64,000 nucleotides of DNA from Aquabacterium sp. (lineage in GTDB: Bacteria; Pseudomonadota; Gammaproteobacteria; Burkholderiales; Burkholderiaceae_C): NCBI RefSeq assembly GCF_016195855.1, contig NZ_JACPYU010000005.1, forward strand, positions 47,471 through 111,470. Direction: 5' to 3'. Both the position numbers and the translations under genes were made by a program. Shown one piece after another: positions 2,229 through 33,391 of the stretch. Numbering within the stretch: the stretch's first letter is position 1; each line of letters begins with the position of its first letter. Under the pieces are notes generated by a model, which did not search any database, was not told the DNA's origin, and saw only the letters and a program-made list of their open reading frames with translations.

Positions 2229-2588
2229 TCAAGTCGGGGTCATCCTGAACCACTGGGGGTGTTGCTGGCGGTAAACCCGCAGCCACATCATCAGGGCGGG
2301 CGTCAGCGCGCGTGCACCGAACACCAGGGCGTCGTCCAACTCGCGCCCACCGGGGCCCGCAAGGGCTTGCCCGGCCACGGCGGTGCCGGCCCAGTCCACC
2401 TCGGGCATGCCTTCGCGCAGCTCGGGGGGCAGGGCGGCGGCCGCTTCCGTGAGCAGACGCAACTGCCGCGCCACCTCCTGCCGGGTCAGGCGTGAGGCCA
2501 GCAACTCGCTGTCTTGCAGGCCTTCGGTGAGGGTCAGCACGGCAACGCCGGCCTCTTCGATCGTCTTGAGCAGGGCGGCGCCAAACAT
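2229..2588 (-). CDS. HepT/DUF86-like protein, last gene of the nif operon
   Basis: A 119-residue helical protein. The middle (about residues 25-75) resembles the DUF86/HepT fold: a run of helices followed by EAAAALPPELRE and MPEVDW, which matches the usual 'EAa..lp.elre..PeidW' signature. In HepT toxins this is followed by an Arg-Asn and His-x-Tyr RNase motif. Here that place reads AGQALAGPGG, so the catalytic residues are absent. It starts 8 bases after the amine-oxidase gene, so the two are surely co-transcribed. No MNT-type antitoxin gene is next to it. My inference is a structural or regulatory protein rather than a toxin; the family call rests on the signature alone. Confidence 0.6.
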   Translation of the reverse strand: MFGAALLKTIEEAGVAVLTLTEGLQDSELLASRLTRQEVARQLRLLTEAAAALPPELREGMPEVDWAGTAVAGQALAGPGGRELDDALVFGARALTPALMMWLRVYRQQHPQWFRMTPT

Positions 2589-2596
2589 GGTCTGTC

Positions 2597-4189
2597 TCAG
2601 TGGGCTTGAAGGGCGCGGCTGCACAACAGGTCGTTGGTGGCCCAGGCGAATTCCACCCAGGCGGCAGCCAGGTCGGCGGTGATGGCGCGCAGGTAGTCCC
2701 CGTCGGGCTTGTGCTCGTCGGGGAAGTTGGACAGCGCGCAGGACTTGGCGTTGAAGACAAGCGCGTCGGCCACCAGCTCCTTGCTGAAGCCGGCAAACGT
2801 GGCCAGCACCGGCGGCGTCAAGGCGTGGCGGCCTGACGCGTGCCCAGGCTCGGCGGGCTCGCTGGCGCACAGGTCCAGGCTGGCCAGTTGCTCCAGCGCG
2901 CGAGTGTAGGTCTGCTCGACGGCGGCCAGCACGGCTCGTTGGGTGAGCTGCTCGCGGTCCTGTCTGGACAACATCTGTTTGACGTGTTGCTGGTAGCGGG
3001 GCATGGCTTGTTCGCGCTCGGCTGCCACCCATTGTTGAAAGCGGGCCAGGGCTGCATCTCCCTGCAAAGACTCGGGCGCGCGGCTTGCCGGCACGGGGCG
3101 CAGAAAATCGGCCAGGCGGGCGGCGGACTCCAGCGCGCCCTCCATGTGGCCTGCGGCCTGCCTGGCCGTTTCCGTGCCGCCGAAGAAGAGGCGACCGGAC
3201 CAATGCGGGCGGCGCAAGACCGGGTCGGCTTGAGGTGGGGCACCAAGCTGGTCGGTGCGGTCCAGGTCGCTGCAGGTCAGCGGGTCAGTGGCCCAGTCCT
3301 GTGTGGTGATGGTGTCGGCCTGTGCTTCAAGACCGAACAGTTGCGCGAACTGGCTGGACACCAGCAGGGGCATGCTGCGCTCGAAGCTGGCGCGGGCGTC
3401 GGGTGGGATGGCGTGAAAGCCGGCCAGGGCCGCACCGTGTTCGTCACTGGCATCCCACACTTCGCGCAACACGGCCTGCACATGGCCCACGAAGGCGCTG
3501 CCTGACCAGCCGTGCTGGAGCCAGAAAGGCTGGTCATAGCGCGCAATGGATTTGGCCTCGCGTGCCATCCAGGTCGAGACGGCGTTCATCGCGTCCACCG
3601 TGAAGGCCGGCAGCGGGGGCTCGAACCGGATGCCCTGGGCCATCAGCCTGGGCGGCACGGCCAGCACGACACGCCTGGCCTGCACCTGGGTCAATTCGGT
3701 CACAGTGCCTTGGGTATCGGGTGTGGTGCCACTCAGGCGCAAGGCGATGTGGTCGCCCTGGTCCTGAAGCGACACCAGTCGCTGGCCCAGTTGCACCGTG
3801 CCCTCAGGCAGGTGTCCTGCAAGGGTGCGCGCCAGTTGCTGCATGCCGCCCGACAAGCGGCGGGCGCCACCATGGATGCCTTCGGCGTCCAGTGGCTCGG
3901 GGGCGCGGCTGGCGTCGGGCAGGTTCAGCACGACGCCGCTGTCTGGTTGGGGAAAGGAGCGCAGGCCCAAGGATTCGACGAGCGCGGTGATGCGGGGCTC
4001 GGTGTCGGGCCAGTACCAGCTGCCACCGAGGTCCACGGCGGCCCCGCCTTGTGTGGGCACATCGGTGAGGATGCGCCCACCCGCTCGCGAGCGGGCATCG
4101 AACACGGCCACACGCAGGCCCTGCAGGTGCAGTTGCCTGGCAAGCGCCAGCCCGGTAAGGCCGGCTCCAACAATGGCGACATCGATCAT
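2597..4189 (-). CDS. FAD-dependent amine-oxidase-like protein with extra C-terminal domain, nif-linked
   Basis: A 530-residue flavoprotein of the monoamine oxidase family. It opens with the FAD dinucleotide motif (VAIVGAGLTGLALA), continues with the RxGGR motif (RAGGRI), has the Lys that usually contacts the flavin N5 water (EAKSIARYDQPFW) and ends the FAD fold with FFGGTE...GHMEGALESA near residues 340-365. About 160 further residues (370-530) are helical and unlike the family. The substrate is unknown. It sits between a [2Fe-2S] ferredoxin gene and the HepT-like gene, with short gaps (41 and 8 bases), which suggests an electron-transfer or redox role tied to nitrogen fixation. Confidence 0.75.
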   Translation of the reverse strand: MIDVAIVGAGLTGLALARQLHLQGLRVAVFDARSRAGGRILTDVPTQGGAAVDLGGSWYWPDTEPRITALVESLGLRSFPQPDSGVVLNLPDASRAPEPLDAEGIHGGARRLSGGMQQLARTLAGHLPEGTVQLGQRLVSLQDQGDHIALRLSGTTPDTQGTVTELTQVQARRVVLAVPPRLMAQGIRFEPPLPAFTVDAMNAVSTWMAREAKSIARYDQPFWLQHGWSGSAFVGHVQAVLREVWDASDEHGAALAGFHAIPPDARASFERSMPLLVSSQFAQLFGLEAQADTITTQDWATDPLTCSDLDRTDQLGAPPQADPVLRRPHWSGRLFFGGTETARQAAGHMEGALESAARLADFLRPVPASRAPESLQGDAALARFQQWVAAEREQAMPRYQQHVKQMLSRQDREQLTQRAVLAAVEQTYTRALEQLASLDLCASEPAEPGHASGRHALTPPVLATFAGFSKELVADALVFNAKSCALSNFPDEHKPDGDYLRAITADLAAAWVEFAWATNDLLCSRALQAH

Positions 4190-4230
4190 GGCGGGCCTCC
4201 CGTGGGCTTGCTGGCCGGTTCAGCGTGGGG

Positions 4231-4527
4231 TCAGACGAAGCTCAGCAGCTCGACCGTGACGGGCTCTTCGCCCAGCGTGGCCTGACAGGCCAGACGCGAC
4301 TTGGAGCTCACGCCCACCAGGGCATCGAGCTTTTCGTTCTCGGTGCGCTGGATCTTGGACAAGCTCTTGCAGCCTTCCTGGATGAAGACATGGCAGGCGC
4401 CGCATTGGGCCTTGCCTTCGCACTTGCTCATGATGGCAGCGCCAGCGGCCTTGATGGCGGCCATCAGGGTGGTGCCGGGGGCCGCGTCGAAGGTGATGCC
4501 GGCGGGCAGGATGGTCAGGGTGGTCAT
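4231..4527 (-). CDS. [2Fe-2S] ferredoxin, nif-linked
   Basis: A 98-residue soluble ferredoxin of the adrenodoxin/plant-like fold. Cluster ligands are visible as CEGKAQCGAC followed about 36 residues later by LACQA, the CX5CX2C...C pattern of [2Fe-2S] proteins of this class. It resembles FdxD-type ferredoxins found in nif regions, but the exact orthology was not tested. A good ribosome site (AGGAG) precedes ATG 4527. It lies between the SIR2-like and amine-oxidase-like genes and is a natural electron carrier for the latter or for nitrogenase maturation. Confidence 0.85.
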   Translation of the reverse strand: MTTLTILPAGITFDAAPGTTLMAAIKAAGAAIMSKCEGKAQCGACHVFIQEGCKSLSKIQRTENEKLDALVGVSSKSRLACQATLGEEPVTVELLSFV

Positions 4528-4584
4528 GGTGCTACTCCTTTGTGGTGGTCAGCGGTTGGCGGGAAACAGAATGAACGGGATGGG

Positions 4585-5454
4585 TCAGGACGCGCACAGC
4601 AGCGCGGCCACTTCAGCCAGGCTCAGGTCGATGCGCGTCACGTTGTTTTCTTCCAGGAAGCGCGCTTCCATGCGGGTGGGCTCGTTGGGCAGCACCGCCC
4701 AATGGCGCTCGCCGGAGCGCTTCATGATCTGGCGGGCAAAGCTGCGCGTGAGCTGGTCGTTGAAGCGGCAGCCCATGAACAGGAAGCCTTTGCCTTTGCG
4801 CAACGCCTGCACTTCGGCGGGGATCGGGGTCTGGATGTCGATCTCGGTCAGCACCTCGACATAGTCCGAGTCCGACACCAGGTAGTTGCTGGCCGGCGAG
4901 CGGCCGCCGATAGGGCGGTAGACCAGGGCCTTCCACGCGGGCGAGCAGCTCTCGGCCAGTTGGCCGTCCGCATCGTAGAAGGCCGTCCAGGTGCCGAAGT
5001 GCTCGGACTGGGACAAGCCCTGCACCTGCCCCCAGTCTTTGGCGGGGCGTTGGGCGGCATAGGCCTTGACCAGGGTGTCGTCATACCAGCTCTCGACCAC
5101 CAGCGGTGGGGCCAGCCTGGCGATCCAGTCGTGCAAGGGGCTGGCCGTGGGGACCTTGGCGAACGCCTCGTCCATCTGGCCCACCACGCTCTTGCGGTGC
5201 TTGAAGTTCTCGATGTACTGCGCGGCCTGCGTGAGCCGGTTGCGGATCTTGTGGGGCACGGTGACCTTGGCGGTCAACTGCGCCACCAGGGCTTCGGGTG
5301 TGGAGGGCACGGGGCAGTCGGGGATCAGGTCCAGCAGGCCGGGGCCCAGGTAGGGCACGACGCGGCCTTCCTTGAGGCCCCCGACCAGCTCGGGCAGCCA
5401 CTCGTTCACGTTGGCGGCGGCAAGGGGCTTGTTTTGGGCTTCGATGACGGGCAT
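4585..5454 (-). CDS. SIR2-like domain protein, nif-linked
   Basis: A 289-residue protein. The N-terminal segment GRVVPYLGPGLLDL sits where SIR2-like proteins have the NAD-binding GAGxS loop, and the C-terminal FLFMGCRFNDQLTRSF matches the 'GysfnD' element of SIR2-like domains. The loop is altered (GPGLL in place of GAGxS), so NAD hydrolysis or deacylation is doubtful. ATG at 5454 is chosen because GGAG lies 7-8 bases upstream; a TTG at 5460 is also in frame. The gene is 27 bases after the DegT-like gene in the nif operon. The role is unknown. Confidence 0.65.
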   Translation of the reverse strand: MPVIEAQNKPLAAANVNEWLPELVGGLKEGRVVPYLGPGLLDLIPDCPVPSTPEALVAQLTAKVTVPHKIRNRLTQAAQYIENFKHRKSVVGQMDEAFAKVPTASPLHDWIARLAPPLVVESWYDDTLVKAYAAQRPAKDWGQVQGLSQSEHFGTWTAFYDADGQLAESCSPAWKALVYRPIGGRSPASNYLVSDSDYVEVLTEIDIQTPIPAEVQALRKGKGFLFMGCRFNDQLTRSFARQIMKRSGERHWAVLPNEPTRMEARFLEENNVTRIDLSLAEVAALLCAS

Positions 5455-5481
5455 GTTCAACTCCGATGTGTTCGGTTCGTG

Positions 5482-6675
5482 TCAGTAGATGGCGGCACCT
5501 GCGCCCACATTGACGGAGGCGTCCTTGAGCGTCTTGACGATGTACTTGACCTCGTCTTCGTCCAGGTGGGTGTGAAAGGGCAGGGTGAGCGAGCGGTCGG
5601 CGATGCGCTCGGTGTTGGGCAGCAGGCCGCGGTGCCAGCCGCTTTGCTGGTAATGGAACTGCTGGTGCAAGGGCACGCAGTAAATGGCGGACTCCACCGA
5701 GTTCGAGTCCATGTCCTCGATGATCTGGTTGCGTGCACTGCCGGTGAAGCGCTTGCCCAGATGGATCTTGTAGAGCATCCAGTGCACCTCGTCGATGTTC
5801 TCGGCGAGATAAGGCGGCTTGATGCCTTCAAAGCTTTGCATCTGCGTGTGGTACCAGGACTCGACCTGCTTGCGCTTCATCAGGATCTCGTCGATGCGCT
5901 TGAGCTGGGCCAGGCCAATGGCCGCGTCCAGATCGCTCATGCTGGCCTGCCAGGGCACGCGGCTGCCCACCGACACCGAGTTGCGGTCGCTGATGCGGCG
6001 CTCGCGCAGGTAGCCCAGCTCGCTGGCGATCTTGGGGGCGTCGGTCAGCACCATGCCGCCCTGGCCGCAGCACAGGGCCGAGGGCTGTGAGAAGTCGAAG
6101 ATGGCCACATCACCAAAGCTGCCGGTGAGCTGGCCCTGGTAGCGTGAGCCAATGGCTTCGGTGCTGTCCTCAATCAGCTTGAGACCGTGCTGGTCGGCCA
6201 GGGCGCGCAGGCCTTGCCAGTCGGCCGGGTGGCCGTTGACGTTGCTGGCCAGGATGGCCTTGGTGCGCAAGCTGATCTTGTCGGCGGCCTTGGCGGGGTC
6301 GATGCAACCGGACCAGTAGTCGATGTCGGCCAGGATGGGGGTGGCGCCCACGATGGTGATGGCGTGCGCGATCTGGTGCCAGGCGTAAGCCGAGGTGATG
6401 ACCTCGTCACCCGGGCCGATGCCCATCACCTTCAAGACCAGGCAGGCACCCAGTGTGCCGCTGGCCACGGCCGCGGCGTGCTGGCGCCCGATGTAGTTGG
6501 CCATGGCCTGCTCGAAGCCGGTGACCAGGGGGCCGGCCGACAGCTGGTTGCTGCGCAAGGTCATCACCACGGCTTCGAGTTCATCGGTGGTGATGTCGGG
6601 GTCCGAGAGGACAAGCCAGTTATCTGGCCCTTCGTCCGTGGTGTTGGCGGCTTCGGTTTGCGTTGGGGTTTCCAT
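5482..6675 (-). CDS. DegT/DnrJ/EryC1-family protein lacking the PLP lysine, nif-linked
   Basis: A 397-residue fold-type I PLP-enzyme homologue. Family landmarks are present: the phosphate-binding region ASGTLGA (71-77), ADIDY (116-120) and the Asp that contacts the pyridine nitrogen in IEDSTEA (D170). The segment FDFSQPSALCCGQGG (193-207) corresponds to the usual F-S-x-x-x-T-K-x4-GEGG, but the lysine that binds PLP is replaced by Ser199. Transamination is therefore unlikely. Known lysine-less relatives such as ColD use His, which is not seen here either. The gene is 15 bases from the upstream small nif gene and 27 from the SIR2-like gene. Confidence 0.75.
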   Translation of the reverse strand: METPTQTEAANTTDEGPDNWLVLSDPDITTDELEAVVMTLRSNQLSAGPLVTGFEQAMANYIGRQHAAAVASGTLGACLVLKVMGIGPGDEVITSAYAWHQIAHAITIVGATPILADIDYWSGCIDPAKAADKISLRTKAILASNVNGHPADWQGLRALADQHGLKLIEDSTEAIGSRYQGQLTGSFGDVAIFDFSQPSALCCGQGGMVLTDAPKIASELGYLRERRISDRNSVSVGSRVPWQASMSDLDAAIGLAQLKRIDEILMKRKQVESWYHTQMQSFEGIKPPYLAENIDEVHWMLYKIHLGKRFTGSARNQIIEDMDSNSVESAIYCVPLHQQFHYQQSGWHRGLLPNTERIADRSLTLPFHTHLDEDEVKYIVKTLKDASVNVGAGAAIY

Positions 6676-6690: not shown

Positions 6691-6957
6691 TCAGGCGTTC
6701 TGCGTCAGCACGAAGGCCGAGGCCTGCTGGGGTTCGGCGGTCACCGTCCAGCAATGGCCATCGGTGGACATGAGGTAGATGGCGCGCTCGGGCGTCACCT
6801 GCATGGCGGGTTGTTCGCCGCGCATGTCGAAGGCGTCCAGCACCAGCGCACGCAGCGGCGCAAAGCGCTCGCGGATGGTGGCCGCGGCCGCGCGCACCGT
6901 GGCCGACTGGCCCAGGATGCTGGCGGCTTCACTCAACTGTTCGCTGGAGATGGCCAT
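6691..6957 (-). CDS. Small nif-linked protein of unknown function
   Basis: An 88-residue acidic, cytoplasmic protein starting at ATG 6957, one base after the nifT stop. The first half is helical and Ala-rich; the second half looks like a small beta sheet (AIYLMSTDGHCWTVTAE). It may belong to the small DUF6129-type proteins found in nif clusters, but I am not sure of that name. Position and tight spacing argue for a role in nitrogenase assembly or its regulation. Confidence 0.6.
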   Translation of the reverse strand: MAISSEQLSEAASILGQSATVRAAAATIRERFAPLRALVLDAFDMRGEQPAMQVTPERAIYLMSTDGHCWTVTAEPQQASAFVLTQNA

Positions 6958-6958
6958 G

Positions 6959-7180
6959 TCACACCTCCTCGCCGGTCGTGGTGCGCTTGGCCTCGACCGT
7001 GATGGGCAGCCGGGTGTCGTCGGGCATCTCGGGCAGGGCCAGTTGCCAGCCATTGGCCATGGTCACCAGGCCACCCCACATCGTGGGCCGCTCCATGGAC
7101 ACGATGGGCTCTTCCAAGTCCTTCTTGGGGATGTAGACAGACAGGATGCCGTCGGCGCCCTTGCGGATCATGACTTTCAT
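6959..7180 (-). CDS. nifT: NifT/FixU family protein
   Basis: A 73-residue protein with the characteristic NifT opening MKVMIRK, the central SVYIPKKDLEEPIVS and the WGG...NGWQLALP elements. NifT is a small beta-rich protein usually encoded near nifHDK; its deletion generally has little effect and its biochemical role is unknown. The start overlaps the nifS stop by four bases (ATGA), so translation is coupled. Here it follows nifS and not nifK. Confidence 0.93.
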   Translation of the reverse strand: MKVMIRKGADGILSVYIPKKDLEEPIVSMERPTMWGGLVTMANGWQLALPEMPDDTRLPITVEAKRTTTGEEV

Positions 7181-11599: not shown

Positions 11600-13186
11600 T
11601 CAAGCGGCTTCAGCGGTGTAGGCACCCTGGCGGATCGAGGCATCGCCGCGAGGCTGATGGGTGATCTCGCCGCGGGCGATGCGGCCGGTGTAGTCGGCAA
11701 ACCAGCTCAGTGCGGCCTTCTCGATGAACTCGTGGGCAAAGGCGTCTACTGGTTCGATGCCGGCGGCCTTGAGCTCGTCACGCGGGCAGGCACCGATCTT
11801 GGCCACCAGCACGGCGTGGCAGTCGTTGATGGCCTTGACGATGGAGGGCAGTTGCTCGTCTTCGCCATAACCGCCCTGGCAGTACAGGTCCACACGGCGG
11901 TGGCCGACGAACAGGGCTTCGGCAGCCGAGACCTCGAAGATCTGGAACTCGGTGGCGTGCCCGAAGTGCAGGTTGACGCGACCGTGGCCTTCGGTGGCCA
12001 CCGCCACGAGCACCTTCATGTCGGGGGCCACTTCACCCATCTGGGCCTTGGCGCTTTCCAGGGCTTCGATCTTGGCGGCGTGCTGCGACTGGCGCTCTTC
12101 TTCGACCTTGTCCTGGTAGCTCTTGCGCTTGTCCAGGTCGTAGACGATTTCCATCTCTTCGATCTTGTCGAGCGTGAACTCTTCAGAGCGGTCTTCACCC
12201 AGCAGGCCCACCGCGTCCGCGCGGCATTGCCTGCAATGGCGCATCAGATTCGCGCCGCCCATGCAGGCGTCCTGCACGGCCTTGAGCTCCTGCGCGGTCG
12301 GGCCACGCTGGCCGGTCAGGCCGAACACGGTGCCGTGCTCGGCTTCCGAGATCAGCGGCATGATGTTGTGCAGGAAGGCCCCGCGCTTCTTGACTTCGCG
12401 GTTCACCTCGATCAGGTGCTCGTCGTTGATGCCGGGGATCAGCACCGAGTTGATCTTGGTGAGCACGCCGCGTGCGGTCAGCATTTCCAGGCCAAGCATC
12501 TGGCGCTCGTGCAGGATCCGGGCGGCTTCGTAGCCCGTCACGCGCTTGTGGTCCCAGAAGATCCAGGGGTAGATCTTCTCGCCCACGGCCGGGTCCACCA
12601 TGTTGATGGTGATGGTGACGTGGTCGATGTTGTACTTGCAGATCTCGTCGACCAGGTCGGGCAGGGCCAGGCCATTGGTGGAGATGCACAGCTTGATGTC
12701 CGGGGCCGATTCCTGCAGCATGCGGAAGGTGTCGAAGGTCTTCTTGGGGTTGGCCAGGGAGTCGCCAGGGCCTGCCACGCCCAACACCGTCATCTGCGGG
12801 ATCTCGCTGGCCACGGCCAGCACCTTCTTGACGGCCTGCTCGGGCGTGAGCTTTTGCGAGACCACACCGGGGCGCGACTCGTTGGAGCAGTCGTACTTGC
12901 GGTTGCAGTAGTTGCACTGGATGTTGCAGGCCGGGGCCACGGCCACGTGCATGCGGGCATAGTGGTGGTGGGCCTCTTCGGAGTAGCAGGGATGGTTCTT
13001 GACCTTGTCCCAGATCTCTTGTGGCATGTCATCGGGCCCGCCCGACGAGCCGCAACTGGCCTTGCCTTCGCCGCCGGTGGTGCCGCAGCCTCCTCCGGAT
13101 GAAACTGGTTCGACTGGTGCGCCCAGGGGGCGGATTTGACCGATGCCGATGAAGGCCGTTGAGGCCAGTGATGACGATGCGTCCAT
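11600..13186 (-). CDS. nifB: NifB, radical-SAM FeMo-cofactor precursor (NifB-co) synthase
   Basis: A 528-residue protein that fuses two [4Fe-4S] units with an inserted SAM-derived carbon to give NifB-co. The SAM-cluster ligands are C87, C91 and C94 ([10 protein letters not shown]), followed by Cys residues for auxiliary clusters, including RHCRQCRAD. An extra Gly/Cys-rich N-terminus ([16 protein letters not shown]) precedes the barrel. A NifX-like domain follows from about residue 385 ([19 protein letters not shown]), as in most proteobacterial NifB. It is the first gene of the long operon; a sigma-54 promoter and a NifA site lie upstream. Confidence 0.97.
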
Positions 13187-13232: not shown

Positions 13233-13248
13233 TGCCATTTCCGTGCCA
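13233..13248 (-). promoter_or_regulatory. Sigma-54 promoter of nifB operon
   Basis: Read on the minus strand, the sequence is TGGCACGGAAATGGCA. The -24 box TGGCACG is perfect; the -12 box is TGGCA in place of TTGCA, keeping the essential GC. Spacing is correct. Transcription would begin near 13221, about 35 bases before the nifB ATG. Confidence 0.85.
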
Positions 13249-13343
13249 CCTTTCTCAGCACGGAAAATCAAGCACTTAGCGGGCTTTTGACGTCAATGGA
13301 TGGGATGCGTGAATGCTTTGGTACATGCCTTGTCGCAAGGCGC

Positions 13344-13359
13344 TGTCATGCTTCTGACA
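13344..13359. promoter_or_regulatory. NifA upstream activator site
   Basis: TGTCATGCTTCTGACA matches the TGT-N10-ACA consensus exactly and is the only perfect match I found between nifB and nifQ. Its centre is about 130 bases from the predicted nifB start point and about 77 bases from that of nifQ, so one site could serve both promoters. Confidence 0.85.
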
Positions 13360-13401
13360 AAGCTGACATGGCTGGCATGACGCTTTGTTGTGCATCGGGC
13401 T

Positions 13402-13417
13402 CGGCACGTGTCTTGCA
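13402..13417 (+). promoter_or_regulatory. Sigma-54 promoter of nifQ
   Basis: CGGCACGTGTCTTGCA matches TGGCACG-N4-TTGCA except for the first base. GG and GC are correctly spaced. The start point would be near 13428, about 36 bases before the nifQ ATG. Confidence 0.8.
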
Positions 13418-13463
13418 CGTTCTTCAGGTGTCTTACAGCCGCACGCACGGCCGGGAGTTGCAC

Positions 13464-13901
13464 ATGGGCGCGATCAGCATTCCACTCAGTCAGTTAGAAC
13501 CCCGCTTGACGCTGCCCGCACAGGCGCGGGAGCCGCTTTCACAGCCGGTCTTGAGCTGGCAAGCCGATGCAGGCGGCCAGCACGACGATGAAATCGAAGA
13601 CCTGGTGGCGCTGCTGATGGAGCACGCCACGTACCCGGGTGTGTTGTCGCGCCATCTGGCGCGGGCCCTGGCCGAGGCGAGCATGGGCTCCAATCACCTG
13701 TGGGAAGACCTGGGCCTGGTCAACCGCGTGCAGCTCAATGAGCTGATGCAGGAGCACTTCACTTCCCTGAGGGTGCTAAACGTGAACAACATGCGCTGGA
13801 AAAAGTTCTTCTACCGCATGCTATGCGAGCGCGCGGACATCCTGATCTGCAAGTCACCACACTGTGAGCAGTGCGAGGACCAGCCACAGTGTTTTGAGTG
13901 A
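13464..13901 (+). CDS. nifQ: NifQ, molybdenum donor for FeMo-cofactor
   Basis: A 145-residue protein. The C-terminus has the NifQ signature ICKSPHCEQCEDQPQC (CX4CX2CX5C), which binds a Mo-Fe-S cluster for delivery of molybdenum to NifEN. The preceding NHLWEDLGL and MRWKKFFYRMLCE segments are also typical. It is rather short for NifQ because the N-terminus before DDEIEDL is only about 35 residues. ATG 13464 is preceded by GGGAG. It is divergent from nifB and transcribed from its own sigma-54 promoter. Confidence 0.93.
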   Translation: MGAISIPLSQLEPRLTLPAQAREPLSQPVLSWQADAGGQHDDEIEDLVALLMEHATYPGVLSRHLARALAEASMGSNHLWEDLGLVNRVQLNELMQEHFTSLRVLNVNNMRWKKFFYRMLCERADILICKSPHCEQCEDQPQCFE

Positions 13902-16812: not shown

Positions 16813-18471
16813 TCAGAACTTGCGCACTTCGATGTCGTATTTTTGCAGGGCATAACCCATCTGGCGGGGGGTGATGTTGAGCAGGCGGGCTGCCTTGGCC
16901 TGCACCCAGCCACACTTCTCCATGGCCCAGATCAGGCGGTCGCGCTCGCCTTCTGGCTTGTCGTCGGAGGCGACGGCCACACCACCATCCTGAGGCTGCC
17001 CGTACTCCGACGCGCCGTAGGCCGAAGCGGGATCGCGGGGCGGGGCTTCGGTGATCGGGATGGAGATCGGGCGCCCAGGCTTGACCGCATCCTCGCGGTC
17101 GATGTAGTGCAGCACCTGGGTCAGGCAGCGGTTGTCGTGGCAGGGGAAGCTCAGGTCCGTCAGGTCCTCGTTCAATGCCATGGTGGCCGTGCGTTCGACG
17201 CAGTTTTCCAGCTCGCGCACATTGCCGGGCCAGTAGCAACTGGTCAGCACCTTCAGCGCACGCGGCGTGACCTTGACCTTGCGGCTGTTCTCGCGATTGA
17301 AGCGCGACAGGAAGTGCTCCACCATCAGCGGGATGTCTTCACGGCGCTCGCGCAGTGGCGGCAGGAAGATGCTGACCACGTTGATGCGGTAATACAGATC
17401 AGCCCGGAATTCGCCCGCGGCCACCATTTTTTCCAGATTGCGGTTGGTGGCCATCACCAGGCGCACGTCCACCTTGATGGGGTTGCTGCCGCCCACGCGT
17501 TCGAATTCCTTCTCCTGCAAGACACGCAGCAACTTGGCCTGGAAGGAGGGCGAGATGTCGCCGATTTCGTCCAGGAAGAGGGTGCCGCCGTGGGCCATCT
17601 CGAAACGGCCCTTGCGCGAGCCGACCGCGCCGGTGAACGCGCCTTTTTCATGCCCGAACAATTCGGATTCCAGCAAGGATTCGGTCAGCGCGGCGCAGTT
17701 CACGCGCACGAACGCTTCGTCTTTGCGGGGCGAGAGGTTGTGCACCGCGCGCGCGATCACCTCCTTGCCGGTGCCACTTTCGCCACGCAGCAAGACGGTG
17801 GTCTTGGTGGGGGCCACCTGGTGCACTTCGGCAAACACTTCCTGCATGCGCGGCGAGCTGCCAATGGCCATGTCCAGCTGCAACACAGGCTTGAGGGCCT
17901 TGGACAGGCGGCGGGCCTCTTCGTACAGGCGGCCTTGTTCGGCACTCACACCACGGTGCAGCAGCAGGTTCTGGCCCATGAGGCTGGCCACCATGGACAG
18001 CAGGCGCAGATCTTCATCGAACACGCCGGAGCGGGTGGTGACGGTGCGGTCGATCGCCAGCACGCCAAGGGTGTGGCGGTTGGCCTTGATCGGGGTGGCG
18101 ATGTAGGCGATGGTTTCCTCGGGTGACTGATCGGCCGCGCCCGTGCGATTGAGAAACATCGGCTCGGCCGAGATATCGGGCACCACCATGGGCACGCCCG
18201 AGCTGAACACCCGCCCGACGATGCCTTCACCCACCGAAAAAGTCAGCTTGGCGGATTCTTCGCGCGACAAGCCGACCGAGCACATGCCGCACAGCGGGCC
18301 TTCTTCTGTTTGCAGGATCACGGATGCCCGGCGCCAGCCCATCGTGGACACCAGCACATTGAGGGCTTCACGGAAGGTTTTGTGAACGTCGAGCGACGAG
18401 CCCAGGATCTTGCTGACCTGGTAGACCGTCAACAATTCGATACTTGCGCGTTCGTGGTGCATGCTGACCAT
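16813..18471 (-). CDS. nifA: NifA, sigma-54-dependent activator of nif genes
   Basis: A 552-residue regulator. It has a GAF domain (about 10-170), an AAA+ domain with Walker A GESGTGKE (230-237), the sigma-54 contact GAFTGA (277-282) and Walker B TLFLDE, then a C-terminal Fis-type helix-turn-helix ([18 protein letters not shown]). Cysteines C412, C424, C444 and C449 form CX11CX19CX4C, the metal/redox motif of NifL-independent, oxygen-sensitive NifA of rhizobia, Azospirillum and Herbaspirillum. ATG 18471 is chosen because GAGGAAG precedes it. Its target sites are seen before nifB and nifQ. Confidence 0.97.
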
Positions 18472-18620
18472 GGTTGTTCTTCCTCGCAGTGTGGTGGTGC
18501 AGACCCGCTGACGCATTCACCGACTTGGGTCGACTTTTGATCGACAAACGGGAACACAACCCTGCATGGGGCCATACGCTGGCAGGATCTGCAAAAAGCA
18601 GGCCTGATAAAGTGGCTGGC

Positions 18621-23126: not shown

Positions 23127-24269
23127 ATGCCCGCAAGGATCGTTCGTCAAGGTCGCTGGCTCGCGCTGGCGGTGGTTGCGCTGGCAAGCGCAGGCTGGCT
23201 GCATTCCCGGGCTGATGGTGGCAAAGGCAAGCCTGTCATGGTGGCGGCGGCAGAGCCTGTGTCCTCCGCGGCCAAGGCGGCCTTGAGTGTCCAGATCGTG
23301 CGCCCGCAGACCGGGCAATGGCCCATGGCGCTGACGGCCAATGGCGCGATCGCCCCCTGGCAGGAGGCGGTCATTGGCGCCGAGTTGTCCGGGCTGCGCC
23401 TGTCGACCGTGGCGGCCAATGTGGGCGACAAGGTGTCGCGCGGGCAAGTGCTGGCCACCCTGCAGGCCGATTCCGTTTCAGCGGATGCGAACAACGCACG
23501 TGCCGCCTTGCAGGAGGCCGAGGCCTTGATGACCGAGGCGCGCGCCAATGCCGATCGTGCCCGCACCCTGCATGGCAGTGGCGCATTGAGCCTGCAGGAT
23601 TCGCAGCGCGCCCTGACCGCCGAGCAGACGGGCAAGGCCCGTGTGGACGCCGCCAAGGCCATGCTGGCCACCCAGGCGTTGCGCCTGCGCCAGACCCGCA
23701 TCGTGGCGTCTGATGACGGGGTGATTTCGGCCAGGCTGGCCACGGTGGGCGCTGTGGTGCAACCGGGGCAGGAACTGTTTCGCCTGATCCGCCAGAGCCG
23801 TCTGGAATGGCGCGCAGAAGTGCCTTCGGCTGACCTGCAGCGCATCAAGCCCGGCATGGTGGCCGTGGCCACGCCGCCCGGTGGCGCCGCCGTGCAAGGC
23901 CGCGTGCGCATGGTCGCCCCGACGGTGGACGCCACCACGCGCAATGGCCTGGTCTATGTGGACCTGCCCGCCTCGGCCTTGGGCGCCGGTGTGCGCGCCG
24001 GCATGTTCGCGTCAGGCCGCATCGAGCTGGGTCAGTCGCAAGGCCTGACCTTGCCCCAGACCGCCGTGTTGTTGCGCGATGGCTTCAGCTACGTCTTCAA
24101 GGTCAGCCCGCAAGGCGTGGTCTCGCAGGTCAAGGTGAGCGTGGGCCGCCGCGTGGGTGACCGCGTCGAGATCCTGCAGGGGCTGGACGCCCAGGCCGAT
24201 GTCGTGGCTTCTGGCGTGGGCTTCCTCACCGATGGCGACAGCGTGCGCATCGTGAAGGGCCAGTCATGA
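23127..24269 (+). CDS. RND efflux membrane-fusion (adaptor) protein
   Basis: A 380-residue periplasmic adaptor. An N-terminal hydrophobic anchor (about 8-25) is followed by a lipoyl/barrel-sandwich half (ANGAIAPWQEAVIGAELSGLRL), an alpha hairpin (about 115-200) and the second lipoyl half (RIVASDDGVISARLATVGAVV). The beta-barrel and membrane-proximal regions follow. ATG 23127 is preceded by AGGAGGGG. The stop overlaps the pump gene start by four bases, so the pair is one transport system. No outer-membrane factor gene is in the window. Confidence 0.92.
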   Translation: MPARIVRQGRWLALAVVALASAGWLHSRADGGKGKPVMVAAAEPVSSAAKAALSVQIVRPQTGQWPMALTANGAIAPWQEAVIGAELSGLRLSTVAANVGDKVSRGQVLATLQADSVSADANNARAALQEAEALMTEARANADRARTLHGSGALSLQDSQRALTAEQTGKARVDAAKAMLATQALRLRQTRIVASDDGVISARLATVGAVVQPGQELFRLIRQSRLEWRAEVPSADLQRIKPGMVAVATPPGGAAVQGRVRMVAPTVDATTRNGLVYVDLPASALGAGVRAGMFASGRIELGQSQGLTLPQTAVLLRDGFSYVFKVSPQGVVSQVKVSVGRRVGDRVEILQGLDAQADVVASGVGFLTDGDSVRIVKGQS

Positions 24270-27200
24270 ACGTCTCGGCCTGGTCGATCAAGAACCCGAT
24301 CCCTGCCGTCCTGCTGTTCATCATGCTCACGCTGTGGGGCCTGATGGGCTTTGGCGGGATGAAGATCCAGAACTTCCCGGACATCGATCTGCCCACGGTG
24401 ACGGTCACGGCCAGCCTGCCAGGGGCATCGCCCGCGCAGCTGGAGACCGAGGTCGCGCGCAAGCTGGAGAACTCGATCGCCACCTTGCAGGGCATCAAGC
24501 ACATCTACACCAAGGTGCAGGATGGCAGCGTGCTCGTGTCGGTGGAGTTCCGCCTGGAAAAGCCGACACAAGAGGCCGTGGACGATGTGCGCGATGCCGT
24601 ATCCCGCGTGCGGGCCGATCTGCCCGGGGACCTGCGTGATCCGGTCATCTCCAAGATGAACCTGTCCGGGGCGCCCATCCTCACGTACACGGTGGCGTCC
24701 AAACGCATGGACGACGAGGCCTTGTCCTGGTTCGTGGACAATGCCGTCACCAAGACCATGCTGGCCGTCAAGGGCGTGGGGGCGGTGGCGCGTGTCGGCG
24801 GGGTGAGCCGCGAGGTGCGCATCGAGCTGGACCCGGCGCGCCTGCTGGCGCTCAATGCGTCCGCCGCCGATGTGTCGCGCCAGCTGCGCAGCCTGCAGCA
24901 AGAGGCTTCGGGCGGGCGCATGGACCTGGGCGGTGGTGAGCAGTCGGTGCGCACGGTGGCCACGGTCAAGTCGGCCGAGGAGCTGGCGGCCATGGACGTG
25001 ACCTTGTCGGATGGCCGCCATGTGCGGCTGGACCAGATCGCGCATGTGAGCGACACGGTGGCCGAGCGCCGCAGCGCGGCCTTGCTCAATGGCCAGCCGG
25101 TGGTGGGCTTCGAGATCACGCGCTCGCGTGGGGCCGGTGAGGTCGAAGTGGCCCAGGGCGTGCGCGCCAAGCTGGCAGAACTCAAGGCGAAGCACCCGGA
25201 CATCGAGATCACCGAGGCCTTCAATTTCGTGGACCCGGTGGAGGAGAACTACCACGGCTCCATGTACCTGCTGTATGAAGGTGCCATCCTCGCGGTGATC
25301 GTGGTGTTCTTCTTCCTGCGCGACTGGCGTGCCACGCTGGTGTCGGCGGCGGCCCTGCCTTTGTCGGTGATCCCGGCCTTCGGCTTCATGCACCTGCTGG
25401 GCTTTTCAGTCAATGTGGTGACGCTGCTGTCCCTGTCCCTCGTGGTGGGCATCCTGGTGGACGACGCCATCGTGGAGATCGAGAACATCATGCGCCACCT
25501 GGCCATGGGCAAGACGCCCATGCAGGCGGCCATGGAGGCCGCCGACGAGATCGGGCTGGCCGTGATCGCCACCACCTTCACGCTGATTGCGGTGTTCCTG
25601 CCCACGGCCTTCATGGGCGGGGTGCCGGGCAAGTTCTTCGTGCAGTTCGGCTGGACGGCGGCCATTGCCGTGTTCTTCTCGCTGGTCGTGGCCCGCATGT
25701 TGACGCCCATGATGGCGGCCTACATCCTCAAGCCACCCAAGGGCGAGCATGGCGAGCCGGGCTGGATGCGGGTCTACCTGGGCTGGGCGCGCTGGTGTCT
25801 CAAGCACCGGGTCTGGACTTTGCTCATCGTGCTGCTGTTTCTGATCGGCTCCTTTTTCCTGTTGTTCCGGTTGCCCACGGGCTTCATTCCACCCGATGAC
25901 CTGTCGCAGACACAGGTGTCCCTGTCCTTGCCGCCTGGCAGCACCTTGCAGCAGACCTACAAGATCGCCGAGCAGGCGCGCGAGCTGGTGCAGCGCAACC
26001 CGCATGTGAAGCTGGTCTACACGGCCATTGGCGGTGGTGCAGCGGGCAGCGACCCGTTCATGCCGCAAGGCTCGGCGGAGGTCCGCAAGGCCACGCTGAC
26101 CATCAACATGACGCATCGCAATGACCGCCCTGGCATCAGCAAGCAGGCCATCGAAGGCCAGTTGCGCCAGGCCCTGGAGGTGCTGCCCGGTGTGCGCGTG
26201 AACGTGGGCTTTGGCGGTTCTGCCGAGAAGTACATCCTGGTGCTCTCCAGTGAAGACGGTCAGGCCTTGTCGGCCCATGCCGAGGTGGTGGCGCGCGAGT
26301 TGCGCAGCATCCCCGGTATTGGCAATGTCGTGTCCACATCCAGCCTGGTGCGGCCCGAGTTGATCATCCGCCCTGACACGGCCCGTGCGGCCGACCTGGG
26401 GGTCAACACGGCCACCATTGCCGACACGCTGCGCATTGCCACCGTGGGTGACTACGAGCAAGGCCTGCCCAAGCTGAACCTGTCGCAACGCCAGGTGCCG
26501 GTGGTGGTGCGCCTGCCCGATGCGGCGCGCACGGACCTGGATCTGCTGGCACGCTTGCCCGTGCCCGGCGCCCGTGGATCGGTGCCGCTGGGCAACGTGG
26601 CCTCACTCTCGCTGGACAGCGGCCCGGCGCAGATCGACCGTTACGACCGCCAGCGCAACATCAACTTCGAGATCGAGTTGAACCAGCAACCGCTGGGTGA
26701 AGTGCAGAAGCAGGCCCTGGCGCTGCCCAGCCTGCGCAACCTGCCTCCGGGCATTGCGCAGTCGACGGTGGGTGATGCCGAGGCCATGGGCGAGCTGTTT
26801 GCCAGTTTTGGCCTGGCCATGCTGACGGGTGTGCTGTGCATCTACATCGTGCTGGTGCTGCTGTTCAAGGGCTTTGTGCAGCCGATGACGATCCTGGTGG
26901 CCCTGGTGTTGTCCATCCCGGGGGCGTTCGTGGCCTTGTATGTGACGCAGACGGCCTTGTCCATGCCGTCGATGATCGGCCTGATCATGCTGATGGGCAT
27001 TGCCACCAAGAACTCGATCCTGCTGGTGGACTATGTGCTGATCGCGCGCAACGAGCATGGCTTGCCGCGCTGGGAGGCCGTGGTGGACGGTTGCCGCAAG
27101 CGGGCGAGGCCCATCATCATGACGACGATTGCGATGGGGGCGGGCATGATGCCGATTGCCCTGGGCATTGGCGTGGACCCGAGTTTCCGGGCACCGATGG

Positions 27201-27355
27201 CGATCGTGGTGATCGGTGGGTTGATCACGTCGACCTTCCTGAGCTTGCTGGTGATCCCGGTGGTGTTCACGTTTGTGGATGACCTGATCCAGTGGACGGG
27301 GCGCTTGGTGAGGCGCCAGCCTCCTGTGGTGGTGGATGAGGGGCTGGAGGCTTGA
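24266..27355 (+). CDS. RND multidrug efflux pump (HAE1-type inner-membrane transporter)
   Basis: A 1029-residue inner-membrane transporter with the normal size and layout: TM1, a large periplasmic loop, TM2-6, a second loop and TM8-12. TM4 has the proton-relay pair in VVGILVDDAIVEIENI. The N-terminus (SIKNPIPAVLLFIMLTLWG) and the PDIDLPTVTVTASLPGASP segment are typical of MdtB/AcrB-like pumps rather than metal exporters. The substrate cannot be read from the sequence. It pairs with the adaptor gene upstream. Confidence 0.94.
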   Translation: MNVSAWSIKNPIPAVLLFIMLTLWGLMGFGGMKIQNFPDIDLPTVTVTASLPGASPAQLETEVARKLENSIATLQGIKHIYTKVQDGSVLVSVEFRLEKPTQEAVDDVRDAVSRVRADLPGDLRDPVISKMNLSGAPILTYTVASKRMDDEALSWFVDNAVTKTMLAVKGVGAVARVGGVSREVRIELDPARLLALNASAADVSRQLRSLQQEASGGRMDLGGGEQSVRTVATVKSAEELAAMDVTLSDGRHVRLDQIAHVSDTVAERRSAALLNGQPVVGFEITRSRGAGEVEVAQGVRAKLAELKAKHPDIEITEAFNFVDPVEENYHGSMYLLYEGAILAVIVVFFFLRDWRATLVSAAALPLSVIPAFGFMHLLGFSVNVVTLLSLSLVVGILVDDAIVEIENIMRHLAMGKTPMQAAMEAADEIGLAVIATTFTLIAVFLPTAFMGGVPGKFFVQFGWTAAIAVFFSLVVARMLTPMMAAYILKPPKGEHGEPGWMRVYLGWARWCLKHRVWTLLIVLLFLIGSFFLLFRLPTGFIPPDDLSQTQVSLSLPPGSTLQQTYKIAEQARELVQRNPHVKLVYTAIGGGAAGSDPFMPQGSAEVRKATLTINMTHRNDRPGISKQAIEGQLRQALEVLPGVRVNVGFGGSAEKYILVLSSEDGQALSAHAEVVARELRSIPGIGNVVSTSSLVRPELIIRPDTARAADLGVNTATIADTLRIATVGDYEQGLPKLNLSQRQVPVVVRLPDAARTDLDLLARLPVPGARGSVPLGNVASLSLDSGPAQIDRYDRQRNINFEIELNQQPLGEVQKQALALPSLRNLPPGIAQSTVGDAEAMGELFASFGLAMLTGVLCIYIVLVLLFKGFVQPMTILVALVLSIPGAFVALYVTQTALSMPSMIGLIMLMGIATKNSILLVDYVLIARNEHGLPRWEAVVDGCRKRARPIIMTTIAMGAGMMPIALGIGVDPSFRAPMAIVVIGGLITSTFLSLLVIPVVFTFVDDLIQWTGRLVRRQPPVVVDEGLEA

Positions 27356-27799: not shown

Positions 27800-28037
27800 C
27801 GGATAAGGGATGTGGCGGTGGCGGCTGGGCGATTTTGGTGGCGTCGCAGGCGCGCAGGGAGGCTCAGGTTTGCCCCTTGTCGCAGACAAGGGGATGGCGA
27901 GGATGTTTGAGCTGCCGAAGGCAGCGAGTTCCGCAGCCACCTGAGCCGGACGAGCACCGTAGAGCAGTCCCGCGTAGCGGGACCGTTACCATATGAGCCC
28001 AGCGGCCGCCGCCACGTCCCCCGCCTCGCGGTGTACC
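27800..28037 (-). repeat. Right copy of the inverted intergenic repeat
   Basis: On the minus strand this copy starts at 28037 with GGTACACCGC and contains the same GGGCTCATATG, CGGTCCCGC...GCGGGACTGC hairpin and AAAATCGCCCAGC (27824-27836) blocks as the left copy. The two copies are diverged by small substitutions and indels. The inner end near 27800 is approximate. Confidence 0.7.
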
Positions 28038-28078
28038 GGGAAAGCGCTCACATCATCAAACGCCAAGTACAGCCCATG

Positions 28079-28108
28079 AAAAAAGGGCCCCATCACTGGA
28101 GCCCCTTC
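28079..28108 (-). terminator. Rho-independent terminator of the thiolase gene
   Basis: Read on the minus strand, AAGGGGCTCC, a short loop, then GGGGCCC and a run of seven T. The stem has one mismatch. It is about 40 bases after the thiolase stop. Confidence 0.7.
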
Positions 28109-28149
28109 GTCATCACCGGCCCAAGCCGGCTGTGCTGAAGATCAAGCGA

Positions 28150-29334
28150 TCAAACGCGCTCGATGACCATGGCAATACCCTGACCGCCACCAATACACAT
28201 CGTGATCAGGGCATAACGGCCACCCGTGCGTTGCAGCTCATAGATGGCCTTGGTCACCAGGATGGCGCCCGTGCCGCCCACAGGGTGGCCCAGCGAAATA
28301 CCCGAACCATTGGGGTTGACCTTCTCGTTGTCCAGCCCCAGCTCCTTGGCCACGGCGCAGGCTTGTGCCGCAAACGCTTCGTTGGCTTCGATCAGGTCCA
28401 TGTCGGCCACCGTCAGGCCAGCCTTGGCCAGCGCATTGCGCGAAGCAGGCACAGGGCCGATGCCCATGTACTCGGGCTCCACGCCAGCATGGCCGTAAGA
28501 CACCAGGCGGGCCAGCGGCTTCAGGCCCAGGGCCTTGGCCTTTTCAGCCGAGGCCATCACCACGGCACCGGCGCCGTCGTTCAGGGTCGAGGCATTGCCA
28601 GCGGTGACCGTGCCCTCTTCCTTCTTGAAAGCCGGCTTCATCTTGGACAGGGCGTCGACCGTGGTGTCAGCCTTCACGCCTTCGTCGGTGTCAAACAGCA
28701 CCACGCCCTTGCGCGTCTTGATCTCCACAGGGACGATCTGGTCCTTGAAGATGCCGGCGGCGATGGCCTTGGCAGCGCGCTGTTGCGACTGCACGGCGTA
28801 AGCATCTTGCTGGGCGCGGGTGATGTCGTAGCGGTTGGCCACGTTCTCGGCCGTGATGCCCATGTGGATGTTCAGGCGCGGGTCGTGCAGGGCACCCAGC
28901 ATGAAGTCCAGCATCTTGACGTCACCCATGCGGGCACCCCAGCGGTTGCTGGTGACCAGGTAAGCACCACGGCTCATGGACTCGGCACCGGCACCCACGG
29001 CGACTTCGCAGTCTCCCAGCAGGATGGACTGGGCAGCCGACACGATGGCCTGCAGGCCCGAACCGCACAGGCGGTTCACGTTGAAGGCGGGGGTTTCTTG
29101 CGGCACGCCGGCGTTCAGGGCAGCCACGCGGCTGATGTAGGCGTCTTGCGGCACGGAGGGGATCACGTTACCCAGCACCACATGGCCCACTTCCTTGGGC
29201 GCGACACCAGCGCGCTCCAGGGCGGTTTTGATCACAAGTGCGCCCAGATCGGCAGGGGGAATGTCCTTGAGCGAGCCACCGAAGCTGCCGATGGCGGTAC
29301 GGGCGGCGCCCACGAAGACGACTTCACGAGTCAT
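28150..29334 (-). CDS. Acetyl-CoA acetyltransferase (thiolase)
   Basis: A 394-residue thiolase II. The nucleophilic Cys is in NRLCGSGLQAI (about C89), the His in NPNGSGISLGHPVGGTG, and the second active Cys in CIGGGQG near the C-terminus. It joins two acetyl-CoA to acetoacetyl-CoA or does the reverse, in polyhydroxybutyrate or fatty-acid metabolism (PhaA or AtoB type). ATG 29334 is preceded by GGAAGGAA. No phaB or phaC is adjacent. An inverted repeat just upstream may be an operator. Confidence 0.92.
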   Translation of the reverse strand: MTREVVFVGAARTAIGSFGGSLKDIPPADLGALVIKTALERAGVAPKEVGHVVLGNVIPSVPQDAYISRVAALNAGVPQETPAFNVNRLCGSGLQAIVSAAQSILLGDCEVAVGAGAESMSRGAYLVTSNRWGARMGDVKMLDFMLGALHDPRLNIHMGITAENVANRYDITRAQQDAYAVQSQQRAAKAIAAGIFKDQIVPVEIKTRKGVVLFDTDEGVKADTTVDALSKMKPAFKKEEGTVTAGNASTLNDGAGAVVMASAEKAKALGLKPLARLVSYGHAGVEPEYMGIGPVPASRNALAKAGLTVADMDLIEANEAFAAQACAVAKELGLDNEKVNPNGSGISLGHPVGGTGAILVTKAIYELQRTGGRYALITMCIGGGQGIAMVIERV

Positions 29335-29383
29335 GTTGTGTTCCTTCCAGGGGGGATGGGGGTAAACGAATCTGATAGGTCCG

Positions 29384-29409
29384 AATCTGACGGGTTCAAT
29401 TGTCAGATT
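29384..29409. promoter_or_regulatory. Inverted repeat upstream of the thiolase gene, possible operator
   Basis: AATCTGAC and GTCAGATT form perfect 8-base arms around a 10-base loop, 50 to 75 bases before the thiolase start codon. A third half-site, AATCTGAT, lies at 29369-29376. The spacing fits a dimeric repressor of TetR or similar type. It has no T-run, so it is not a terminator. Confidence 0.45.
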
Positions 29410-29499
29410 ATGCGCCAACGGCGCCAATCCGAGGTCAATCCATCATGATGCGCTCATTTTGGCCGATCAGCCGTCACCCGGCTGTCGCTCATCTGTCGT

Positions 29500-30612: not shown

Positions 30613-30632
30613 GTTCGGGTGTCAGCCTGTGG

Positions 30633-31544: not shown

Positions 31545-31547
31545 GGC

Positions 31548-32933: not shown

Positions 32934-32971
32934 GGCGGTGTGGATCCTGGCGGTGGTGTTGTTGTTGGTTC

Positions 32972-33001: not shown

Positions 33002-33027
33002 GCCATGCCGCCGCTGGTGTGAAGGAT

Positions 33028-33381: not shown

Positions 33382-33391
33382 GGTGGCGTCC

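What the first reader, a model, noticed from the sequence alone, without database searches (positions are those of the whole stretch)
2229..6675. Nif-operon tail built from five atypical families: an undescribed nitrogen-fixation module
Five genes at the end of the nifB operon encode a DegT-like protein without its PLP lysine, a SIR2-like protein with a changed NAD loop, a [2Fe-2S] ferredoxin, an FAD amine-oxidase-like protein with an added C-terminal domain and a HepT-like protein without its RNase residues. Three of the five lack the hallmark residues of their family, and all are co-transcribed with nifB. Seen: sequences, order, short gaps. Inferred: that they form one redox or scaffold module.
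Basis: partly seen in the sequence, partly recalled or inferred. Interest (0 to 1): 0.75.

Follow-up and report, generated by a model that had tools for sequence, protein, structure and literature searches.

The report
Retired-enzyme helpers of nitrogenase
The tail of a nitrogen-fixation operon carries a SIR2-like and a DegT-like protein that lack catalytic residues of their families, next to a small [2Fe-2S] ferredoxin; the set recurs in related nitrogen-fixation operons and is likely a helper that keeps nitrogenase working while the cell respires.

Summary
Among 80 loci closest to the window's SIR2, DegT is in 78 and the ferredoxin in 70; an overlooked small gene, orf88, is in 53 of 56 long loci. 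The amine-oxidase-like gene (19 of 56) and the 'HepT-like' gene (10 of 56) are add-ons, and the HepT label is below Pfam's cut-off. More widely, SIR2 is the common part: nif-type DegT is in 12 of 42 SIR2+ genomes.

DegT lacks the PLP lysine in 75 of 75 rows; 18 of 18 paralogues have it. No nif SIR2 row (0 of 37) has both catalytic Asn and His; 6 of 6 other SIR2 proteins do.

The SIR2 part is not undescribed. Pseudomonas stutzeri PnfA (PST1325), by synteny and annotation its distant sister, is NifA-dependent; its mutant has 23% activity at 0.5% O2 but wild-type-like activity without oxygen (PMC2820453). The Mesorhizobium loti homologue is dispensable in nodules (PMC3538637). I infer a module that maintains nitrogenase under respiration. 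New here: the residue losses, the unification of the SIR2 types, and the DegT-ferredoxin pair.

The parts
11600..13186 (-). nifB, first gene of the 16-gene run
   Evidence: TIGR01290 match at G000:C10:59175-60491, 677 bits, over cut-off
13233..13248 (-). putative sigma-54 -24/-12 site upstream of nifB (one mismatch)
   Evidence: the pattern is not enriched in the window as a whole
13344..13359 (+). putative NifA upstream activator site TGT-N10-ACA (2 in the window, 10.7 expected)
6959..7180 (-). nifT
   Evidence: TIGR02934 111.5 bits against cut-off 41
   Evidence: no family over cut-off in Pfam or NCBIfam; in 53 of 56 long related loci
5482..6675 (-). DegT-like protein without Schiff-base lysine; C-terminal GAGAAIY tail
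   Evidence: PF01041 6e-90; K in 0 of 75; one side of a branch, SH-aLRT 100; top fold matches GDP-perosamine synthase and ArnB
4585..5460 (-). SIR2-like pseudo-sirtuin (nif type I)
4231..4527 (-). [2Fe-2S] ferredoxin, nearest to Isc ferredoxins
   Evidence: PF00111 4e-11; TIGR02007 71.5 bits, below its cut-off of 132; best PDB 1i7h, 3ah7; four Cys kept
2597..4189 (-). FAD amine-oxidase-like protein with about 165 extra C-terminal residues; lineage-restricted
   Evidence: PF01593 3e-38; at least 200 bits in 19 of 56 long loci
2229..2588 (-). small protein, HepT label not supported; lineage-restricted
   Evidence: PF01934 15.5 bits against cut-off 23.5; at least 60 bits in 10 of 56 long loci

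Best explanation
The tail encodes a nitrogenase helper set in which a SIR2-like and a DegT-like protein lack catalytic residues of their families and stand beside a [2Fe-2S] ferredoxin, and it likely acts after transcription to keep nitrogenase active when the cell respires oxygen or nitrate. Proposed working (inferred): the pseudo-sirtuin (PnfA family) is the widespread core and binds a nitrogenase component or an assembly factor. Its loop T205-P214, invariant in 26 type I rows, is partly predicted as disordered on its own (pLDDT under 50 at 203-209), as expected of a docking surface. The DegT-like protein is a scaffold that docks the [2Fe-2S] ferredoxin; the ferredoxin passes electrons to, or senses oxidation of, the Fe-S and cofactor machinery made by the same operon (NifB, NifZ, NifS, IscA, LRV-FeS protein). 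Shown by calls: linkage, co-occurrence of SIR2 with NifB, residue loss, predicted fold. Shown in print for relatives: NifA control and the O2- and nitrate-conditional mutant defect. Inferred: that this window's type I protein does the same as PnfA, that DegT and ferredoxin bind each other, and the docking.
For: Linkage: of 80 loci fetched by SIR2, 52 have degT-sir2-fdx, 18 degT-fdx-sir2, 8 degT-sir2 and 2 sir2 alone. Of the 56 long ones, 56 have nifB and 55 nifT. Co-occurrence: in 369 genomes of the class, SIR2 profile 29, NifB over cut-off 32, both 27. In 398 of the phylum, the 17 strong SIR2 hits are all among the 43 NifB genomes. DegT and ferredoxin stay together where SIR2 lies elsewhere (L187, L188), and are neighbours in Bradyrhizobium ORS278 (BRADO5410-5411, PMC3899966). 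Residue loss. Phenotype: the pnfA mutant has 23% activity at 0.5% O2, wild-type-like activity without oxygen (where the wild type itself is much lower) and a loss with nitrate; nifH transcription is unchanged; complemented, data not shown (PMC2820453). The M. loti msi351 mutant is fully effective in nodules (PMC3538637), which fits if the need arises only under respiration outside the low-oxygen nodule.
Against: PST1325's sequence was not in hand: its identity with type II rests on synteny (divergent from nifH), size and the 'SIR2 family' label. Type II is only 24-28% identical to the window (45-80% within type I), so function may differ. No mutant of DegT, the ferredoxin or orf88 was found. 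DegT is in only 12 of 42 SIR2+ genomes, and 4 of 56 long loci have DegT without ferredoxin. 26 of 43 NifB genomes of the phylum sample have no strong SIR2 hit. The Bradyrhizobium authors note that the related cluster is up-regulated in Azorhizobium bacteroids and suggest a symbiotic role (PMC3899966), which goes against a nodule-dispensable module. Contact between the proteins is untested. The pnfA authors leave electron transfer and oxygen protection open.
Confidence: 0.4

Rival explanations
1. The SIR2-like protein belongs to the NAD-dependent control of the Fe protein: it reads NAD+ or ADP-ribose, or assists DraT/DraG.
For: The SIR2 fold is an NAD-binding fold. In 5 of 22 type II genomes draT lies within 0.7 kb of sir2 on the same strand; in the 4 of these where nifH was in the stretch it is divergent.
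Against: DraT is absent from 11 of 22 type II genomes and from 25 of 42 SIR2+ genomes, and present in 8 of 11 NifB+ genomes without SIR2. Residues around the NAD site are the ones lost. The pnfA phenotype is on oxygen and nitrate; an ammonium effect is not reported in the section I read.
Confidence: 0.15
2. The SIR2-like protein is an active protein deacetylase acting on nitrogenase, as suggested in print for Zymomonas ZMO1821.
For: SIR2 annotation; ZMO1821 lies in the nif island, is up-regulated, and the authors propose deacetylation (PMC8600466, passages). Five of 7 rows of the alpha group keep the His.
Confidence: 0.05
3. DegT is a live lysine-less enzyme of the E1 (CDP-6-deoxy-hexulose-3-dehydrase) or ColD kind, with the ferredoxin as its reductant.
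For: E1 is among the fold matches (3bcx rank 44; the title of 3bb8, 'E1 Dehydrase H220K Mutant', shows a natural His there). The ferredoxin neighbour is [2Fe-2S]. Asp170 and the aromatic at 99 are kept.
Against: No His at the lysine column: S53 G18 A3 C1 of 75. No Cys among the invariant columns of 24 rows for a built-in cluster. The Ser of the F-S-F motif, which I recall as a phosphate ligand, is Asp in 17 of 17 nif-type rows. No sugar-nucleotide gene was seen in the operon.
Confidence: 0.1
4. The genes are passengers of nif islands with little effect on fixation.
For: M. loti msi351 (SIR2) is dispensable in nodules. The last two genes are patchy, and pieces of the amine-oxidase-like gene remain in 5 Paraburkholderia loci. 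DegT is missing from 30 of 42 SIR2+ genomes.
Against: The DegT group spans more than one class (kinship column) with one branch of support 100. Many residues away from the old active sites are invariant. pnfA phenotype and complementation.
Confidence: 0.15

Closest known systems
PnfA (PST1325) of Pseudomonas stutzeri A1501
   Same: SIR2-labelled protein (PMC11332353), nif-linked, NifA/sigma-54 dependent, reported only from diazotrophs; its authors already split it into two subfamilies about 20% identical, which may be my types II and I
   Different: PnfA is divergent from nifH; the window's protein is in a nifB operon with DegT and ferredoxin. Sequence of PST1325 not compared
Msi351 (Mesorhizobium loti R7A), RHE_RS30545 (Rhizobium etli CFN42), Rcc03262 (Rhodobacter capsulatus)
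   Same: SIR2-like gene behind nifT/fixU in the nifB operon; NifA control reported for Msi351's operon and Rcc03262; the R. etli protein is 47.7% identical to the window's over 90%
   Different: No DegT or [2Fe-2S] ferredoxin follows in the R. etli region read; the M. loti mutant has no nodule phenotype
BRADO5410-5411 of photosynthetic Bradyrhizobium ORS278
   Same: [2Fe-2S] ferredoxin next to DegT, near NifZ, LRV, TPR and SufA-like genes (PMC3899966)
   Different: Only listed among strain-group-specific genes; no function assigned to them; lysine of BRADO5411 not examined
SIR2 domains of ThsA, DSR2 and KomC (phage defence)
   Different: ThsA keeps the Asn and His in the alignment; nif SIR2 lacks at least one and sits in nif clusters
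GDP-perosamine synthase / ArnB sugar aminotransferases
   Same: Fold and 29-33% identity in the top 18 rows
   Different: PLP lysine and F-S-F serine lost; GAGAAIY tail gained
FdxD / Shethna protein FeSII
   Same: A ferredoxin tied to protection of nitrogenase from oxygen: FdxD as stated in PMC6925177; FeSII and the [2Fe-2S] type of both recalled
   Different: The window's ferredoxin is nearest to Isc ferredoxins; no FeSII entry among the 5 PDB sequences at E up to 1e-6

Membership tests
DegT/DnrJ/EryC1/StrS aminotransferase | profile and fold | tested here: met
   PF01041 6e-90; Foldseek TM 0.82-0.85 in the top 18 rows
DegT/DnrJ/EryC1/StrS aminotransferase | Schiff-base lysine | tested here: not met
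   0 of 75 rows; 18 of 18 paralogues have it
E1/ColD lysine-less dehydratases | His at the lysine position | tested here: not met
   S53 G18 A3 C1 of 75
E1/ColD lysine-less dehydratases | built-in [2Fe-2S] Cys site (E1 only; recalled) | tested here: not met
   no Cys among the invariant or nearly invariant columns of 24 rows
SIR2 NADase or deacylase | SIR2 fold | tested here: met
SIR2 NADase or deacylase | catalytic Asn and His | tested here: not met
   window W125 and I184; 0 of 37 nif rows have both, 6 of 6 controls do; alignment to ThsA
PnfA family | nif linkage with NifA/sigma-54 control | tested here: inconclusive
   linkage shown; activator-like and sigma-54-like sites lie before nifB at the head of the same run; expression not measured
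PnfA family | sequence similarity to PST1325 | not testable with these tools
   record not found under its name; no Pseudomonas name in the 120 rows listed by each type II search, most of which carry no name
Shethna FeSII | similarity to FeSII sequence | tested here: inconclusive
   not among PDB matches at E up to 1e-6; looser threshold not run
HepT | PF01934 over cut-off | tested here: not met
   15.5 bits against 23.5
Flavin amine oxidase | PF01593 domain and N-terminal dinucleotide-binding domain | tested here: met
   PF01593 3.4e-38, PF13450 9e-15; activity not tested

The most novel reading that the evidence does not exclude
Diazotrophs have a second, ferredoxin-gated nitrogenase protection machine built from two retired enzymes: a pseudo-sirtuin that grips a nitrogenase or cofactor-assembly protein and a pseudo-transaminase that docks a [2Fe-2S] ferredoxin as redox switch, kept by lineages that must fix N2 while respiring on their own.
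Probability: 0.13. Interest if true: 0.85.

Novelty: new variant of a known kind. Interest (0 to 1): 0.58.

Why it matters
Oxygen tolerance limits nitrogenase engineering, and PnfA, whose loss costs three quarters of microaerobic activity in P. stutzeri, has no biochemical frame in the papers I saw. Reading the family as pseudo-sirtuins argues against the deacetylase idea in print, puts versions from several proteobacterial groups in one family, and adds a partner set (orf88, DegT, ferredoxin) that can be deleted and pulled down. It also offers one rule for conflicting phenotypes: needed under respiration, dispensable in nodules.

Tried and rejected
Considered and rejected: a defence or toxin-antitoxin reading (SIR2 plus HEPN). 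PADLOC matches are weak or off-target (flavoprotein to a desaturase model 2.5e-10; SIR2 to LmuA 0.005; last gene to Cmr5 0.002), HepT is below cut-off, and the setting is nif. DraT partnership as the general rule: not supported by distribution. An E1-like dehydratase: see membership test. SIR2 profile hits at face value: G164's hit is an ordinary SIR2 with GAGAS, TTNYD and HG; G268's is nif-type II at a contig end, in a genome without a full NifB hit.

Led nowhere: PST1325 by name. Three protein searches (120 rows listed of 4483-4982, most unnamed) and the genus counts of two plasmid searches showed no Pseudomonas. NCBIfam had no family for the SIR2 protein. A 2025 methanotroph paper (PMC12727197) held none of six terms sought. 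The fdx-order line used stop-to-stop frames and is wrong; one search replaces it. The SIR2 tree has long branches; grouping types I and II has SH-aLRT 91 and the root is weak.

Dropped rows: 24 of the 80 loci are short and left out of the 56-locus counts, among them L058 and L078, the two that lack DegT. Of 73 distinct NifB+ genomes in the two samples I gave 53 to the DegT and DraT searches. The loci are the best 80 of 146. The 'alpha' group is my label: only L201 is named (Rhizobium etli); L190 and L193 group with it and the other four rows are unnamed. Type II was assigned by score alone for G163, G079, G343 and G425. Changed on re-check: confidence 0.42 to 0.40 and novel case 0.15 to 0.13, because DegT is in only 12 of 42 SIR2+ genomes and because of the symbiotic role suggested in PMC3899966; the passenger rival rose from 0.13 to 0.15.

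Literature: the 10 searches are. Read as passages only: PMC6925177, PMC11332353, PMC9412634, PMC3093359, PMC3916325, PMC6053447, PMC3538637, PMC3899966, PMC9164220, PMC5249018, PMC8600466. PMC12727197: a term search without passages. PMC2820453: passages and the whole of section 9. Others were seen only as search listings.
Full report
WHAT IS IN THE WINDOW. On the minus strand, 16 ORFs run from nifB (11600-13186) to a small gene ending at 2229, with gaps of at most 59 bp. In order: nifB, fdxN, iscA-like, TPR-like, LRV with an FeS4 domain, two nifZ-like genes, DUF3024, nifS-like, nifT, orf88, DegT-like, SIR2-like, [2Fe-2S] ferredoxin, amine-oxidase-like and a last 119-codon gene. Families are where scanned; fdxN, iscA, nifZ and nifS are my reading of sequence and position, in agreement with the annotation of a related plasmid. 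Upstream of nifB lie a TGT-N10-ACA site (13344-13359) and a TGGCACGGAAATGGCA site (13233-13248), the signs of NifA/sigma-54 control. NifQ (PF04891) lies beyond on the plus strand and a NifA-type sigma-54 activator at 16813-18516. nifH is on another contig of the same genome.

ARE THE FIVE GENES A UNIT? SIR2 was used to fetch related loci from named genomes (146 relatives, best 80 kept; SIR2 is present by construction). Gene order by stop codon: degT-sir2-fdx in 52 of 80, degT-fdx-sir2 in 18, degT-sir2 in 8 (some of these contigs end soon after sir2), sir2 alone in 2 (L058, L078). In the 56 loci with at least 7 kb before and 4 kb after sir2: nifB 56, nifT 55, orf88 53, degT 56, fdx 52, amine-oxidase-like 24 (19 at 200 bits or more), last gene 15 (10 at 60 bits or more). 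The same order, without the last two genes, is annotated in Paraburkholderia aromaticivorans plasmid pBN1.

GENOME-WIDE LINKAGE. In 369 genomes sampled from the class, the SIR2 profile A1 hits 29 and NifB passes its curated cut-off in 32; 27 have both (Fisher p 1e-33, not corrected for kinship). Of the two others, G164 carries an ordinary SIR2 protein and G268's gene is nif-type at a contig end. In 398 genomes sampled from the phylum, the mixed profile A3 hits 20; the 17 hits of 267 bits or more are all among the 43 NifB genomes, and the 3 weak ones (under 30 bits) are not. Against universality, 5 of 32 and 26 of 43 NifB genomes show no such SIR2. DegT of nif type was sought in 80 genomes (53 of the 73 NifB+, and 27 without NifB): 12 hits of 485 bits or more, then a gap to 245 bits; all 12 are NifB+ and SIR2+. 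That is 12 of the 42 SIR2+ genomes among the 53: DegT is the narrower part, SIR2 the wider.

SIR2 TYPES. Type II lies near nifH on the opposite strand in the stretches that hold nifH and is 24-28% identical to the window. The tree groups I with the alpha rows (SH-aLRT 98) and both with II (91, long branches).

WHAT PRINT SAYS. P. stutzeri PST1325 = pnfA, later labelled SIR2 family (PMC11332353): NifA/sigma-54 dependent, divergent from nifH, reported only from diazotrophs in 2010. A non-polar mutant has 23% activity at 0.5% O2, wild-type-like activity without oxygen (where the wild type is itself much lower), loses activity with nitrate, has unchanged nifH transcript, and was complemented (data not shown) (PMC2820453). 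M. loti msi351, sirtuin-like, end of a NifA-driven nifB operon: mutant fully effective in nodules (PMC3538637). R. capsulatus Rcc03262: not found in the nifA mutant's proteome (PMC6925177). Zymomonas ZMO1821: proposed deacetylase (PMC8600466). The DegT-ferredoxin pair appears as BRADO5410-5411 in a table of genes specific to nod-independent Bradyrhizobium. The authors say that related genes (BRADO5414, 5416, 5418, 5424) form an operon shared with Azorhizobium but not with three rhizobia that do not fix N2 free-living; they also note its up-regulation in Azorhizobium bacteroids and suggest a symbiotic role, which goes against my reading (PMC3899966). Of 167 plasmid records hit by DegT, the best four (52-62% identity; the fifth has 32%) are nif-type by identity: two Paraburkholderia, one Methylococcus, one Bradyrhizobium; 75 plasmids carry SIR2, 55 of them Rhizobium. 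One of the four hosts is from a root nodule and one from peanut root material, so a free-living rule is not strict. No paper giving a role to the DegT or naming the residue losses turned up in the listings of searches.

HOW IT MOST LIKELY WORKS. The conditional pnfA phenotype and the nodule-dispensable msi351 fit one reading: a post-transcriptional helper that matters when the cell respires while fixing nitrogen. A pseudo-sirtuin and a pseudo-transaminase would serve as binding platforms, with the ferredoxin as electron donor or oxidation sensor. The steps from residue loss to platform, and from PnfA to this type I protein, are inferences. draT beside type II sir2 in 5 of 22 genomes leaves a link to Fe-protein control open, but the distribution of DraT does not support it as the general function.

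VERDICT. New, as far as my searches show, are the family-wide loss of catalytic residues, the unification of the SIR2 types, and the conserved orf88-DegT-ferredoxin partner set.

Noticed in passing
G084, G125, G184, G318, G343 (L112:8432-9319, L113:8866-9720, L118:8691-9557, L124:8502-9404, L103): draT lies within about 0.7 kb of type II sir2 on the same strand in 5 of 22 type II genomes; 11 of the 22 have no DraT.
   Followed up: partly
window 6691-6957 (minus): Conserved 88-residue protein of no known family, with a GHCW motif, next to DegT; 53 of 56 long loci.
   Followed up: partly
window 5482-6675, C-terminus: The last residues NVGAGAAIY are nearly invariant in nif-type DegT and absent from the 18 paralogues compared; such a tail might insert into a partner.
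   Followed up: no
L028, L031, L043, L052, L054 (Paraburkholderia): Short pieces of the amine-oxidase-like gene (36-66 bits) downstream of sir2 look like remains of a lost gene.
   Followed up: no
window 13402-13417 (plus): A second sigma-54-like site (one mismatch) on the strand of NifQ, inside the called ORF 13287-13901; the true nifQ start may lie further downstream.
   Followed up: no
window 24266-27355 and about 28000-38100: Beyond the nif genes the window holds an AcrB-type transporter, a thiolase and flagellar genes (FlgK, FlgE).
   Followed up: no
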